A DNA stretch of 64,000 bases from Chaetoderma sp. LZ-2023a (Eukaryota; Mollusca; Caudofoveata; Chaetodermatida; Chaetodermatidae): positions 118,871,704 through 118,935,703 of the forward strand of contig CM067360.1 in NCBI GenBank assembly GCA_034401795.1, read 5' to 3'. How positions within the stretch are numbered: position 1 is the first letter of the stretch; each line of letters starts with the position of its first letter. Positions 29,009 to 57,738 of this stretch are shown in pieces. The position numbers and the translations under genes are program-made. A model generated the notes under the pieces. That model ran no database searches. It saw nothing but the letters and a program-made list of their open reading frames with translations, and was not told where the DNA came from.

Positions 29009-29409
29009 CCTTTCCATTTTAGCTATGCCCGGCCCATCTCTAGCTAAGCTCCATCCACACCTCGCTCGTGCTCTGATTAATCGATCTCTGAACCCCCTGA
29101 TTATCGATGTCAAGAAAACTATACAGGTACGCTGTTGAATAGTTTGAAACTAATTTGACTGGGTGCTGTTGTTGCCTAAGGCAGCAACAGCACTCAGTCA
29201 AATTAGTTTCAAAATATTCAACACCATGTTTCTTAAATAGCAAAGAATTACAAAGACATACAATTGATACAACGTGTCGGAGTATTTGAGATTTGGTGAC
29301 CGTCTATATGGAACCCTTTGTGACGTAATGATTGTGACGTCATCGTGCATGCGCTGAGATGATTATGACGTCATACGAGGTCAGATGATGCGTGGCTACT
29401 TTGGAAAGG
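29009..29409 (+). mobile_element. E1 element, complete, 401 bp
   Basis: Ends CCTTTCCA and TGGAAAGG are inverted repeats. Inside, in order: TAGCTATGCCC, CCATCTCTAGCTAAGCTCCA, CTCGCTCGTG, ATACAGGTACGC, a 91-bp hairpin (29133-29223), TCTTAAATAGCAAAGAATTA, then TGACGTAA (29321), TGACGTCA (29335) and TGACGTCA (29366). No coding capacity. It fits a MITE-like non-autonomous element; the target duplication cannot be resolved because the copy lies inside a larger duplication. Confidence 0.75.
29133..29223. repeat. HP1 hairpin, 91 bp
   Basis: Arms of about 43 bp (TGTTGAATAGTTTGAAACTA, ATTTGACTGGGTGCTGTTG and their complement) around a short TAAGG-centred loop, with a few mismatches. The central element of E1. 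Confidence 0.92.
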
Positions 29410-29590
29410 TGAATTATTCCTGCGTTTGCCAGATCTTATCCTCGGTGTATTCAGGCGTTGGTGATGGGGACTTTTTAGCATGGATATGCAAGGTTCGAAA
29501 GCAATGCCAAGCAAGAGGGTGTCGTAATCTTGGATCATAGATGTAGTTTATGTCCATCTCCAACTGGGAAATAACTCTGGACCTGCTGCA

Positions 29591-29681
29591 TATTCAGAGA
29601 ACAATTTGACTGATATTTGTCGGTGTCTTAGCCACCAACAATTTGAAGTCAATTTGTTTTTCAAAATATGCTGCATGTCCA
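29591..29681. repeat. HP2 hairpin in R1
   Basis: TGCATATTCAGAGAACAATT, TGACTGATATTTGTCGGTGT, then CTTAGCCACCAACAATTTGA and TCAAAATATGCTGCA. Confidence 0.75.
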
Positions 29682-30059
29682 GATTTAAACGACGTGAAAA
29701 ATGTGGTCTGCAGAGATGATTCAGAAGGCAAACAGTTAAGATAACACATTCAAGGGATAGGCTACCTAACTTTCCGCCTCAATCAGACCAGGAATGTGGT
29801 TAGAATAGCTGCCAGATACATCAATTATGCCATCACGATGTGCACAATGCAATTGCTTACCATCATCTGCACACATTCAAATTAATCGACATATATTACA
29901 TCGATACTTGTTTGTAGCAGTTCGTTTCATTTGGGTTTGAGAATTACAGTGAGCAACCACTGATGAATGATCAAATCATTAGAAACTTTAAATTATACCA
30001 GTGATCGAGTGAATGCATAGTTTAATGAGTGAATGCATAAATGAATGCATGCCTGACTG

Positions 30060-31296
30060 ACGGACTGAATGAATGAATGAATGAATGAATGAATGAACGA
30101 ACGAATGAATGAATGACTGAATGAATGAATGAATGAATGAATTAATTAATTAATGAATGAATGAATGAATGAAAGAACGAACGAAGGAACGAATGAAAGA
30201 ATGAACGGTCAGAACGAAGGAACGAACGAACGAACGAACGAATGAATGAACGAACGAACACGAGAATGAATGCGAGAACGAACGAATGAACGAATGAATG
30301 AATGAATTAATGAATGAACGAACGAATGAATGAACGAACGAACGAACGAACGAACGAACGAACGAACGAACGAACGATCGAACGAATGAACGAACGAACG
30401 AACGAACGGCCGAACGAATGAAAGAACGAACGGATGGACGAACGACCAAACGAATGAACGAACGAACGAACGAACGAACGAACGAGCGCACGAACGAACG
30501 AATAGGTCGAACGAACAAACGAACGAACGAACGAACGAACGAATGAATGAAAGAATGAATGAAAGAATGAATGAATGAATGAATGAATGAATGGACGAAT
30601 GAACCCTTGAGCAAAAGAACGTACAAATGTACAAATGAACGAACGAACGAACGAACGAACTAACGAACGGACGGACGAACGAACGAACGAACGATTGAAC
30701 GAACGAACGGATGGACGAACGACCAAACGAATGAACGAACGAACGAACGAACGAACGAGCGCACGAACGAACGAATAGGTCGAACGAACAAACGAACGAA
30801 CGAACGAACGAACGAATGAATGAAAGAATGAATGAAAGAATGAATGAATGAATGAATGAATGAATGAATGGACGAATGAACCCTTGAGCAAAAGAACGTA
30901 CAAATGTACAAATGAACGAACGAACGAACGAACGAACTAACGAACGGACGGACGAACGAACGAACGATTGAACGAACGAACGAACGAACGAACGAAGGAA
31001 CGGACGAACGAATGAAAGAACGAACGGATGGACGAACGACCAAACGAATGAACGAACGAACGAACGAACGAACGAACGAACGAACGAACGAACGCACGAA
31101 CGAACGAACGAACGAATAGGTCGAACGAACACACGAACGAGCGAACGCGTGGACGAAAGGGCGAATTAATGAATGAATGAATGAACAAACGAAAGAATGC
31201 ATGAATGAATGAATGAGTGAATGAATGAATGAATGAATGAATGAATGAATGAATGAATGAATGAATGAATGAATGAATGAATGAATGAATGAATGA
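30060..31296. repeat. GAAC/GAAT tetranucleotide array 1 with higher-order repeats
   Basis: About 1.24 kb of GAAT and GAAC tetramers. A landmark GAACCCTTGAGCAAAAGAAC occurs at 30601 and 30878 (277 bp apart), followed each time by GTACAAATGTACAAATG, so the array has a higher-order period. On the minus strand GTTC and ATTC units lack stops in all frames (Val-Arg-Ser-Phe and Ile-His-Ser-Phe), creating overlapping ORFs up to 307 codons. These are not genes. Confidence 0.97.
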
Positions 31297-55407: not shown

Positions 55408-55940
55408 TACATACTTTATTTCCCATGAAATATGTACTCGTTTACGGAAATGCAAATAAGGGCTTGCTGGGAAAATACATTAAGGTAACCGCTCCAACGG
55501 GGTGGAAAGAAATGATCGAAATTGTTCGATGATGGCGACAAATACGTTGTCTTTACGCAAAGAAACGTAAACGCAATTACAATGGGCCTGCTCAGGCTCC
55601 ATCCGCACCTCGCTCCTGTTGGAATCGATCGATCCCTGAACTCACTGACTATCAATTTCCAGAAAACTATAGAGGTACGTTGTTATATATTTTGAAACTA
55701 ATTTTACTGGGTGTTGTTGCTGCCTATGGCAGCAACAGCGCCCGATTAAATTGGTTTCAAACTATTCAACAGACTGTGCATTAACTGGTAAAGACATCCA
55801 ATTCGTACAATGTCTCGGACTTTTCCGCATTAAAGATGGACTATATCGAGTCATTCCTGACACCATGATTGTGACGACATCCTGCAAGTCATGTGGTTGA
55901 TTATGACGTCATATGGCGTCGTCATATGATGGATGGATAC
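55408..55940 (+). mobile_element. E1 element, left end replaced, with spacer
   Basis: From about 55590: CTCCATCCGCACCTCGCTCC, GTTGGAATCGATCGATCCCT, CAATTTCCAGAAAACTATAG and AGGTACGTTG, HP1 at 55681-55771, CATTAAAGATGGACTATATC and TGACGTCA at 55904. The normal left end is absent; upstream, ATTGTTCGATGATGGCGACA resembles the insert at 53119-53138. Confidence 0.7.
55681..55771. repeat. HP1 hairpin, 91 bp
   Basis: TGTTATATATTTTGAAACTA, TTTTACTGGGTGTTGTTGCT, GCCTATGGCAGCAACAGCGC, CGATTAAATTGGTTTCAAAC, TATTCAACA. Confidence 0.9.
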
Positions 55941-56019
55941 ACTTGAACGGTTCATTCAACCTGCATTAAGCGGGCACCTTATGGGACAGATCGAAAATGA
56001 AGGGATCCGATTTGCCACT

Positions 56020-56370
56020 CAATTATACGATGGCATAATCAATTACGTCACTTGTTAGCTAACGTCGCGACCAGAATGGCGTAGGCCCGTCACGAGGGTC
56101 GAAAATACCCGTCACAAAAGTGTATGAATTGTTCTTTTTGTGTAAATTTGCAATCTATTAAATATTCTGTTGAATACTTTGAAAGCAATTTGACTTGAGA
56201 ACAGCAACAGCTCCCAGAGAAATAAGTTTCAAAATAATCGACAGTTTATGTATATAATTACCTTAAATTCGATATTCTGGGTATTCAGGGTTCGAAGGTG
56301 ATACATCGATTCCAGCGCATACAATGTAGGAGGCGCTTAGCTAGAAAAGGGCGTGGCATAACTACAAGTT
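56020..56370 (-). mobile_element. E1-like element, inverted
   Basis: ATACGATGGCATAATCAATT, CAATTACGTCAC, HP1 at 56168-56243 (76 bp, deletion on one side of the loop), AGGTGATACATCGATTCCAG and GGGCGTGGCATAACTACAAG. Confidence 0.65.
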
Positions 56371-57354
56371 TACCCCAACCCACCCACACCCACCTTAATA
56401 CAGTTGGCGTAATATATTGACCATCTTTTGGCGCTAGAGAAATGACATTTCTTTAAAACGTGTGGTATTACAACCACGTGTCTTAAGGAACCGCCATATT
56501 TTTGCGCCAAAAAGCAAGTTGTTGCTCTGGCAGGTTTGATTGTAATATTATTTACACGAACACGAATATCGTCCTTACCTTTGCACCTCCAAGAATAGGG
56601 ACCGAGCGACGATGATGATGATATTGATGAAGAAAACGTCCAAATGGTCTATTCATCTCGGGAACTACAACTGTCGACAGAGTTACCGCCGCGTAGCTGG
56701 TAAGCGGTAATGCCGGTTCGCGGCCCTCTCATGGGAGAAGGTTAGACCTCGCTGCGTTGTATTTACGCCAGTTCTTCACGTACTTCATCTGCTAATTGCC
56801 GATTCCTGTTGCCTGGATCATTAAGAGAGATGGTCACAGCGGGACCTAAGATGCAAAAATACAGAAATAACATTAGAAAGCGAGATTTATATGCATTGAC
56901 CATTTATCGCCTTTCGACTGCGCTGTACTATTTGGATAAGAGAAATATTAAGTGCTCGTGGGTGCGTGCTGTGTGCGGTTGTGCGTACGTTCGTGCGCAT
57001 GTGCATGCGCACGTCTGTGCGGGAGCCAAACGGGTGGGCAGTTGGAGGGATTGGCGTGCGGGTGGGCGGGAATTTGTTCCTATTGTCATCTCGATATCAT
57101 TGTCCATTTAAATACATTTCCGAGTGCATATATATGTGTGTGGCCCACAAATGATGGTTTCCCTCACAATGCAGATGAACAAATAGAAGTGTCTTGAGTG
57201 TACGAAAACCGCTCATGAATTGTCCATTATACTACTCATATAGGCTAATGCGTATAGAGAAGCTAAAGACGCAAAATGCCTAATTTGTGTCTCGAAGTTT
57301 CAAAGTTATTTGGTGACAAAATTTGTTTTCTGCAAATTGTAAGCCCAGAATAGA
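56371..57354. other. Unassigned, with a GTGC-rich patch
   Basis: Positions 56958-57020 are a decayed GTGC/GTGT tract that leaves frames open (81- and 100-codon ORFs). Positions 56570-56830 are GC-richer with GATGATGATGATATTGATGA. No gene supported. Confidence 0.35.
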
Positions 57355-57738
57355 CATTTCAAATGTATCCAACCATCATATTGACGTCATAATCAACTAC
57401 CTCACGTGTATGATGACGCCATAATTACGACGCCGGGAATGACTCGAAATAGTCCGTTTTTAGCACTTAATATGCCGACACGTTGTACGAATTGTAAGTC
57501 TTTACCATTCAATTAACATTCTGTTGAGTATTTTGAAACGAATTTGACTGGACGCTGTTGCTGCCATAGGCAGCAACAGCGCCCAGTCAAATTAGTTTCA
57601 AAATATTTAACAACGTAGCCTGTATAGTTTTCTGGAAATTGATACTTGGCGAGTTGAGGGATCGAGGGATCCGAACACGAGCTAGTTGCGGATGGGGCTT
57701 AGCCAGCAATGGGTAGGCCATAACTAAAACTGGACAGA
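57355..57738 (-). mobile_element. E1 element, inverted, about 384 bp
   Basis: TGACGTCA at 57382, TTTACCATTCAATTAACATT, HP1 at 57522-57612, GTATAGTTTTCTGGAAATTG and GGGTAGGCCATAACTAAAAC. Decayed ends CATTTCAA and TGGACAGA. Confidence 0.7.
57522..57612. repeat. HP1 hairpin, 91 bp, nearly perfect
   Basis: TGTTGAGTATTTTGAAACGA, ATTTGACTGGACGCTGTTGC, TGCCATAGGCAGCAACAGCG, CCCAGTCAAATTAGTTTCAA, AATATTTAACA. Only a few arm mismatches. Confidence 0.93.

What the first reader, a model, noticed from the sequence alone, without database searches (positions are those of the whole stretch)
29133..57612. A 91-bp hairpin of fixed length with compensatory changes in both arms
HP1 copies at 29133, 31689, 34652, 37485, 50438, 50850, 55681 and 57522 all measure 91 bp, although three of these belong to one recent duplication. 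Several copies show matched substitutions: GAAAGTAAT/ATTACTTTC (7862 and 50850), GGAAC/GTTCC (53974), and GAGAACAATTTG/CAAATTGTTCTC in the related HP2 (26021), against the usual GAAAC.../...GTTTC. Paired change means either selection on a folded RNA or DNA hairpin, or arm-to-arm conversion at palindromes. Size and stem (about 43 bp, small loop) are also in the range of small-RNA precursors, as known for MITE-derived miRNAs and siRNAs.
Basis: partly seen in the sequence, partly recalled or inferred. Interest (0 to 1): 0.75.

Follow-up and report, generated by a model that had tools for sequence, protein, structure and literature searches.

The report
Central palindrome of abundant mobile elements
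The 91-base hairpin is the middle part of small, very common jumping DNA elements in an animal-sized genome; its arms match because each element family starts out with a nearly perfect palindrome, and about half of the copies examined without regard to the hairpin have lost part of it, mostly at the tip, which makes this genome a natural record of how cells damage DNA palindromes.

Summary
The hairpins exist as described, and the eight listed copies are 91 bp. HP1 is not free-standing: it is the internal palindrome of a ~413-bp element with ~16-bp inverted ends. Related palindromes centre two TTAA-bounded elements (211 and ~213 bp). All look like MITEs. HP-like places occur at 0.35/kb in 40 sampled stretches, extrapolating crudely to 0.85 million.

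Length is not fixed. Among copies chosen by left flank alone, 20 of 38 (HP1) and 18 of 32 (HP3; 8 of 40 dropped) are shortened. A breakpoint lies within 7 bp of the tip in 87% and 68% of distinct deletions (random 33%). This resembles center-break palindrome revision.

Paired changes split in two. Between family founders they dominate: 9 of 9 pairs differing between HP1 and HP2 differ on both arms. Within families they are near the independent expectation (HP3 22 against 20.8; HP1 56 against 51.7), though some older sets show an excess in arm-swap tests. No G·U strand bias (46:45), no Rfam match.

So pairing belongs to founders, made or selected when families arise, and decays afterwards. A small-RNA role is unsupported but untested. 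Closest description: the Lucina pectinata 210-bp MITE.

The parts
29003..29415 (-). complete HP1 element (~413 bp), hairpin 29133-29223
   Evidence: profile hit over the whole model
31560..31971 (-). complete HP1 element, hairpin 31689-31779 (second copy of the recent triplication)
34460..34872 (+). complete HP1 element, hairpin 34652-34742 (third, inverted copy of the triplication)
37303..37703 (+). older HP1 element, hairpin 37485-37575 (91 bp)
50256..50658 (+). older HP1 element, hairpin 50438-50528 (91 bp)
50661..51058 (+). older HP1 element, hairpin 50850-50940 (91 bp), with the paired change at pair 18/74
53848..54235 (-). older HP1 element, hairpin shortened to 80 bp (53974-54053), with the paired change at pair 15/77
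55594..55956 (-). older HP1 element, hairpin 55681-55771 (91 bp)
57350..57744 (+). older HP1 element, hairpin 57522-57612 (91 bp)
55997..56367 (+). older HP1 element with shortened hairpin (76 bp, 56168-56243)
45792..46131 (-). older HP1 element with hairpin reduced to 42 bp by a near-symmetric centre deletion
25172..25550 (-). older HP1 element with shortened hairpin (76 bp)
10859..11210 (-). older HP1 element with shortened hairpin (70 bp)
28324..28688 (-). older HP1 element with hairpin reduced to 38 bp
1156..1246 (-). 91-bp HP-like hairpin, preceded at about 1096 by TTAACCCTTTGACGCC (resembles a TTAA-type element end)
7861..7951 (+). 91-bp HP-like hairpin with the paired change at pair 18/74; strand weakly supported
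8210..8300 (-). 91-bp diverged HP-like hairpin
26023..26095 (+). HP2-type hairpin, shortened (73 bp)
29584..29675 (+). HP2-type hairpin; same hairpin in the triplication at 32140-32231 and, inverted, at 34200-34291

Best explanation
HP1, HP2 and HP3 are homologous central palindromes of MITE-like non-autonomous DNA elements. Shown: HP1 sits at a fixed place in a ~413-bp element with ~16-bp terminal inverted repeats; HP3 is the centre of a 211-bp element bounded by TTAACCCTTTCACCGAT inverted repeats; HP2 is the centre of a ~213-bp TTAA-bounded element palindromic over nearly its whole length. The majority (founder) hairpins pair at 43, 43 and 44 of 44 positions, and founders differ from each other almost only by changes on both arms. 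Shown: inserted copies then change on the two arms nearly independently, and about half of those chosen by flank have lost part of the hairpin, mostly with one breakpoint near the tip. Inferred: the tip is opened as a DNA hairpin or cruciform by the host's palindrome-processing nucleases and rejoined asymmetrically (center-break revision), probably early after insertion, since shortened and intact copies are equally diverged. Inferred and uncertain: founder-level pairing arises because a palindrome is re-made symmetrically at the birth of a family (fold-back or inter-arm copying) or because only copies with an intact palindrome multiply.
For: Element architecture. Abundance: 80 match rows with only 40 of 751 candidates scored; 41 HP-like places in 117,155 non-N bases of 40 3-kb stretches. 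Tip deletions: 33 of 70 deletions of 4 bp or more lie wholly inside the hairpin, although it is 91 of 395 model positions; 26% of bases are deleted in the central bin against at most 6.5% in any bin outside the hairpin. HP3: 0.33 and 0.29 deleted at the centre against at most 0.01 in the right spacer. Nearest breakpoint to the tip: HP1 young median 3.5 against 10.5 random, p 3e-5; HP3 2.5 against 11.5, p 6e-4. Physically close copies share a junction (L190/L195, L197-L199, L212/L213), so those deletions are inherited rather than read artefacts. Founder pairing: HP1-HP2 9 of 9, HP2-HP3 8 of 9, HP1-HP3 4 of 5 differing pairs changed on both arms, against 1.84, 1.64 and 0.45 expected. Near-independence within families. 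No divergence difference between intact and shortened copies: p 0.25 and 0.44.
Against: Arm-swap tests show some true association in older or mixed sets: HP3 full-length WC fraction 1/2000, matched doubles 9 against 3.7 (2/2000); all 32 HP3 243/2000 and 91/2000; older HP1 106/2000 and 12/2000. Shared subfamily variants such as pair 34/58 explain part of this, but rare conversion in inserted copies is not excluded. In the older HP1 set the tip breakpoint excess is not significant (p 0.15). One left-flank bin of young HP1 also shows 7.7% deletion. A target-site duplication could not be shown for HP1. The HP2 consensus comes from 14 copies plus one, chosen by hairpin similarity, in an element whose orientation is ambiguous. 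No mobilising transposase was tied to any family. The process that keeps founders paired was not observed.
Confidence: 0.75

Rival explanations
1. Selection on a folded RNA: the elements are transcribed and the hairpin is kept by compensatory change because the RNA (small-RNA precursor, or an RNA needed for spread) must fold.
For: The hairpins fold far better than shuffles; founders differ by compensated changes. The HP1 consensus mismatch at 32/60 and, in the subfamily found by the hairpin query, at 40/52 are C·A on one strand, i.e. G·U on the other.
Against: Private changes give G·T and A·C about equally (46 v 45 in HP3; 6 v 10 in young HP1). Little or no excess of private compensated pairs. 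About half of flank-chosen copies lose part of the hairpin. No Rfam match in the window.
Confidence: 0.08
2. Ongoing arm-to-arm conversion (quasi-palindrome correction) in inserted copies makes the paired changes.
For: Excess matched doubles over arm-swapped copies in older and mixed sets. Tip inversions: in L008 the loop and the 40/52 marker are both flipped against the flanks; loops TTA/TAA and ATA/TAT coexist.
Against: Young full-length HP1 copies: 31 one-arm changes, 2 both-arm, 0 matched; 0 matched in 30 high-scoring, mostly hairpin-selected copies. Doubles 22 v 20.8 in HP3 and 56 v 51.7 in HP1.
Confidence: 0.12
3. Selection at the level of transposition: only copies with an intact palindrome (cruciform bringing the ends together, or a binding site) multiply, so founders stay paired while inserted copies decay.
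For: Each of the three family consensus hairpins is full length although about half of the flank-chosen copies are shortened. In the young HP1 set shared junctions are only between neighbours on one contig.
Against: Families were found through the hairpin, so families without one would be missed. Two dispersed pairs in the older set have the same deletion coordinates (L029 and window 46131; window 25550 and 55997): possibly shared, possibly independent. Nearly every founder difference is already compensated, which fits one-step symmetrisation at least as well.
Confidence: 0.35
4. A neutral palindromic MITE with no role for the hairpin: inverted halves are made once, and everything later is decay.
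For: The HP2 majority sequence is palindromic at 103 of 106 pairs, as expected from a single fold-back event.
Against: The same hairpin is retained in families with different ends and non-palindromic spacers.
Confidence: 0.3

Closest known systems
Lucina pectinata haemoglobin-gene 'consensus sequence 1' MITE-like repeat (PMC4732748; passages seen)
   Same: 210 bp, 30-bp imperfect inverted ends, a central self-complementary segment of 77 bp, repeated; its authors found no target duplication. HP3 here: 211 bp, 21-bp ends, central 91-bp palindrome.
   Different: Sequences could not be compared (figures are not held). The species of this window is unknown. The paper describes copies in the HbI and HbII genes and, in the passages seen, says that some are truncated but nothing of tip breakage or founder-level compensation.
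piggyBac-type TTAA MITEs
   Same: HP2 and HP3 elements are bounded by TTAA; the HP3 ends begin TTAACCCTTT. piggyBac-type transposase (PF13843) is abundant in this genome (119 matches). That piggyBac targets TTAA is recalled.
   Different: Three of those matches were examined at their flanks. Two showed a TTAACACGTTGACTGCC motif upstream with no matching downstream end, and none showed TTAACCCTTTCACCGAT. HP1 has other ends.
Center-break palindrome revision (Cunningham et al. 2003, cited in the review PMC8701086; passages of the review seen; the primary paper not read)
   Same: Deletions at the palindrome centre that break its symmetry and stabilise it; the review reports rearrangement in about 35% of offspring for a mouse transgene palindrome, and 93% deletions among 118 rearrangements in cells.
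   Different: Those are engineered palindromes; here it is inferred from footprints in a dispersed natural family of 91-bp palindromes.
MITE-derived miRNA precursors (hsa-mir-548 from Made1; PMC1784062, listing and start of abstract only)
   Same: Short MITE that can fold as a hairpin.
   Different: No transcript or small-RNA evidence here; no Rfam match; changes on the two arms are nearly independent within families.

Membership tests
MITE (non-autonomous DNA transposon) | terminal inverted repeats | tested here: met
   HP1 15 of 16, HP3 19 of 21 aligned positions; HP2 majority sequence palindromic at 103 of 106 pairs
MITE (non-autonomous DNA transposon) | target-site duplication | tested here: inconclusive
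   HP2 and HP3 consensus elements are bounded by TTAA on both sides. For HP1, 45 complete copies show no duplication beyond the constant AAT...ATT ends. Of four insertion sites with relatives lacking the insert, three have a relative with AATT at the junction (L020, L025:2412, L035; other relatives of L035 differ) and one has GTTT or ACTT: compatible with a 2-3 bp duplication, not proof
MITE (non-autonomous DNA transposon) | short, high copy number | tested here: met
   211-413 bp; 0.35 HP-like places per kb in 40 stretches
MITE (non-autonomous DNA transposon) | autonomous partner with the same ends | tested here: inconclusive
   119 PF13843 matches; the flanks of 3 were examined, none with these ends
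structured RNA / miRNA precursor | covariation among copies above a neutral palindrome model | tested here: inconclusive
   within families near expectation: 22 v 20.8 and 56 v 51.7 doubles, young HP1 0 matched; but an excess exists in some older or mixed sets, partly from shared subfamily states
structured RNA / miRNA precursor | small RNAs from the arms | not testable with these tools
   no reads available
structured RNA / miRNA precursor | match to a described RNA family | tested here: not met
   no family at gathering score in the whole window, both strands
Lucina pectinata consensus-1 family | sequence similarity | not testable with these tools
   consensus given only in a figure; architecture agrees
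Helentron/HINE (Pearl-like) | Rep-Hel partner, T|T insertion, 3' stem-loop (recalled) | not tested
   considered because of the AATT-like target and mollusc examples in the listing

The most novel reading that the evidence does not exclude
The hairpin is a portable palindromic core that has been carried by at least three MITE-like families with different ends and targets (TTAA and AATT-like). Each family is born with a freshly symmetrised palindrome, through fold-back copying of one half from a broken tip, and many of its copies are then disarmed within a short time by tip breakage. Palindrome breakage would thus be both the fate of the copies and the source of new families.
Probability: 0.25. 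Interest if true: 0.75.

Novelty: new variant of a known kind. Interest (0 to 1): 0.5.

Why it matters
The studies of palindrome stability that I saw described used engineered constructs. Here, by extrapolation, several hundred thousand natural copies of related 91-bp palindromes, of graded age and with an inferable starting sequence, record what happened to each. That would allow deletion rate, breakpoint rules, the stabilising effect of mismatches and tip inversion to be measured from sequence alone. It also shows that compensated changes in a hairpin need not mean an RNA under selection: the same family can look strongly covarying between founders and close to neutral within them.

Tried and rejected
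Rejected: HP1 as a free 91-bp MITE (flanks are homologous across copies). Rejected: fixed length. Considered and not supported: RNA selection. Considered: lower divergence of hairpin arms than of the right flank in young HP1 (3.1% v 8.1% column mean); variants seen in one copy only give 1.4% v 1.7%, so most of the difference is polymorphic columns in the flank. Led nowhere: species identification. Two paper searches by chromosome number and assembly size gave nothing usable; a cytochrome oxidase search pointed to a gammaproteobacterium on contig C18, and the 80 bacterial loci were not used further. Led nowhere: piggyBac partner. A profile of the HP3 element built without fixing the strand was abandoned because palindromes match both strands. 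Literature searches for centre deletions or palindromes in such elements listed no paper that by its title or the start of its abstract describes tip deletions in MITE palindromes; that is a statement about these four searches only. Rows dropped before counts: 2 recent duplicates of 87 HP1 copies; 8 of 40 HP3 copies; in the 53-copy tally, copies in L004-L028 scoring 345 or more, which removes the hairpin-selected ones but also at least L017:616 and L025:4167, which were not selected.
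Full report
WHAT IS THERE. The eight 91-bp hairpins are real, and the six stretches folded (five copies, one on both strands) fold better than all 200 shuffles each. A profile built from ten copies finds 27 HP-like places in the window at E<=1e-3, or 35 at E<1. The window lies in a 2.44-Gb genome. Forty 3-kb stretches at round coordinates hold 41 HP-like places in 117,155 non-N bases, found in 20 of the 40 stretches; the same profile finds none at E<=1e-3 in the reversed sequences. 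That is 0.35 per kb, against 0.42 in the window; extrapolated crudely it is about 0.85 million places.

THE HAIRPIN IS PART OF LARGER ELEMENTS. Flanks of HP1 copies align with each other on both sides. Depth of matches drops sharply outside a ~413-bp unit, whose majority sequence runs from AATTCACCTTTCCAG to CTGGAAAGGTCCATT with the hairpin at positions 192-282. Several older copies have the exact inverted end AATGGACC...GGTCCATT or close to it. Among 45 complete copies no target duplication beyond the constant AAT...ATT was detectable. Of four insertion sites with relatives lacking the insert, three have a relative with AATT at the junction (L020, L025:2412, L035, where other relatives differ) and one has GTTT or ACTT, so a 2-3 bp duplication inside AATT is possible but not shown. 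HP3 is the centre of a 211-bp element with ends TTAACCCTTTCACCGAT. HP2, from 14 genomic copies plus one already held, is the centre of a TTAA-bounded element whose majority sequence of 213 bp (some positions with under 60% agreement) pairs at 103 of 106 positions. HP1 and HP3 also share the 42 bp left of the hairpin (29 of 42 identical; none of 500 shuffles as good); the right flank is not significantly alike (82 of 500).

LENGTH IS NOT FIXED; THE TIP IS LOST. Of 79 copies with both flanks, 44 are 91 bp, but many of these loci were fetched because their hairpin matched a 91-bp query. Leaving out copies in L004-L028 that score 345 or more (53 left), 19 are 91 bp, 30 are shorter and 4 longer. 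Two samples were chosen by left flank alone. HP3: 39 places fetched of 40 (the fortieth was already held and was added), 8 dropped as chimeric or lacking the right end, 32 used: 14 full length, 18 shortened. Young HP1: 38 fetched of 40 (the other two already held and not added): 18 full length, 20 shortened. Three groups of loci on one contig share a junction (L190/L195, L197-L199, L212/L213), so distinct deletions of 5 bp or more number 15. In the older HP1 set two dispersed pairs share deletion coordinates (L029 with window 46131, window 25550 with 55997). Deletion is concentrated at the palindrome centre: 26% against at most 6.5% in any bin outside the hairpin; 33% against at most 1% in the right spacer; 35% against at most 2.4% in the right flank, though one left-flank bin has 7.7%. 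One breakpoint tends to lie close to the tip: median distance 3.5 (HP1 young) and 2.5 (HP3) against 10.5 and 11.5 for random placement in the hairpin (p 3e-5 and 6e-4), within 7 bp in 87% and 68% against 33%. In the older HP1 set the trend is the same but not significant (6.5 against 12.5, 52% against 31%, p 0.15). Junction microhomology averages 1.3 bp against 0.8 at random. Shortened and intact copies do not differ in right-flank divergence (p 0.25 and 0.44), and the shortened share is similar at about 5% and about 12-13% median divergence, so losses seem to come early; this is an inference. Copies L005, L012 and L024 carry a match that stops at position 51-52 of the hairpin, as if broken off just past the tip. 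Tip inversions seem to occur too: L008 has both loop and pair 40/52 flipped relative to its flanks, and loops TTA/TAA (25 v 6 in HP1, 7 v 5 in HP3) and ATA/TAT (10 v 2 in HP1) coexist; a single middle-base change could imitate TTA/TAA.

PAIRED CHANGES: TWO LEVELS. Within families, 85 oriented HP1 copies (two recent duplicates dropped from 87; three subfamily majorities) have 56 double-changed pairs against 51.7 expected if independent, 27 complementary; slid controls give 32-46 doubles and 4-16 complementary. HP3 has 22 doubles against 20.8, 10 complementary; slid controls give 11-20 doubles and 1-7 complementary. Slid controls underrate the true-pair numbers, because hot positions face each other across the stem and two transitions at a true pair are complementary by themselves. 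From the spectrum (146 of 259 hairpin changes are transitions) I estimate about 41% complementary by chance, i.e. about 23 of 56 and 9 of 22, against 27 and 10 observed. Young full-length HP1 has 31 one-arm changes and 2 two-arm changes, none complementary. Exchanging right arms among copies gives no excess of pairing for 30 high-scoring, mostly hairpin-selected HP1 copies (1878 of 2000 swaps as high) and a weak one for all 32 HP3 copies (243 of 2000; matched doubles 91 of 2000), but a clear one for 14 full-length HP3 copies (1 of 2000; 2 of 2000) and one for 35 older HP1 copies (106 of 2000; matched doubles 12 of 2000). Some of these are shared subfamily states, such as pair 34/58 changed to A-T in three HP3 copies. 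I cannot exclude rare conversion. Single-arm changes give G·T 46 and A·C 45 in HP3, so no strand is favoured as an RNA fold. On ten window copies the named-structure count gives 6 pairs changed on both sides against 4.5 in shuffles (120/500), with cells paired, both-side cells and covariation score above nearly all shuffles (0, 5 and 7 of 500); the tool warns that relatedness alone can do this.

Between families the picture is opposite. The majority hairpins pair at 43 (HP1), 43 (HP3) and 44 (HP2) of 44 positions. They differ at 9 pairs (HP1-HP2), all on both arms (8 complementary in both families); at 9 pairs (HP2-HP3), 8 on both arms; and at 5 pairs (HP1-HP3), 4 on both arms (3 complementary in both); independent change would give 1.84, 1.64 and 0.45. 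The HP2 majority sequence could be symmetrised by mixed orientation, but its hairpin columns, apart from one loop base, carry at least 60% agreement, which a one-arm fixed difference in mixed orientation would not give.

HOW IT MOST LIKELY WORKS. These are MITE-like elements that spread as copies of a founder with a nearly perfect central palindrome. After insertion the palindrome forms a hairpin or cruciform, its tip is opened, and asymmetric rejoining removes part of it; this is what a review reports for engineered palindromes (PMC8701086, passages; the primary paper was not read). Remaining intact copies accumulate mismatches on the arms nearly independently. Why founders are paired is open: either only palindromic copies multiply, or a family begins with a fold-back copying event that makes both arms from one. 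The almost wholly palindromic HP2 element favours the second, the retention of the same hairpin in elements with unlike ends favours the first.

COMPARISON WITH WHAT IS KNOWN. The closest description found is the Lucina pectinata haemoglobin-gene MITE of 210 bp with 30-bp inverted ends and a 77-bp central palindrome (PMC4732748, passages). Its letters were not available, so membership is untested. Rfam has no family at gathering score in the window. piggyBac-type transposases are abundant (119 matches), but the flanks of the three examined do not carry these ends. The host species was not identified.

Noticed in passing
L026:1860-1985 (and many other loci): A second very abundant palindromic repeat, with arms AATAGTCTTCGCTTTCTCTGCAAA-like and a centre GGTTCGATAACCGAGCC; 72-90 matches in the sampled DNA over its length.
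   Followed up: no
window about 28940-34940: A recent triplication carrying one HP1 and one HP2 hairpin per copy, third copy inverted, with simple repeats (Arg-Ser-Phe-like frames) between.
   Followed up: partly
window 25300-25810 and 45790-46520: Two older paralogous segments sharing flanks with each other and, without the HP1 insert, with the triplicated unit: a natural empty site.
   Followed up: partly
G000 contig C18, about 3.29 and 4.65 Mb: Two COX1-family genes with no internal stop; the one read is like gammaproteobacterial terminal oxidase subunits (67-68% to its nearest relatives), so the assembly seems to contain a bacterial genome, perhaps a symbiont.
   Followed up: partly
HP1 element positions about 40-95 (e.g. 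L026:2360-2420): Two TGACGTCATAATCA motifs, resembling CRE palindromes (recalled), in the left part of the ~413-bp element.
   Followed up: no
L035:118-326 and L045:590-800: A further TTAA-bounded element with a diverged hairpin (GTGTACATTTTTCAACAATTTT...), possibly a remote relative of the same core.
   Followed up: no
L217 hairpin: A hairpin lengthened to 101 bp by a short direct duplication at the tip, another kind of tip rearrangement.
   Followed up: no
window 42336-42694: A long imperfect inverted repeat, arms about 130 bp at 72%, perhaps of simple-sequence origin.
   Followed up: no
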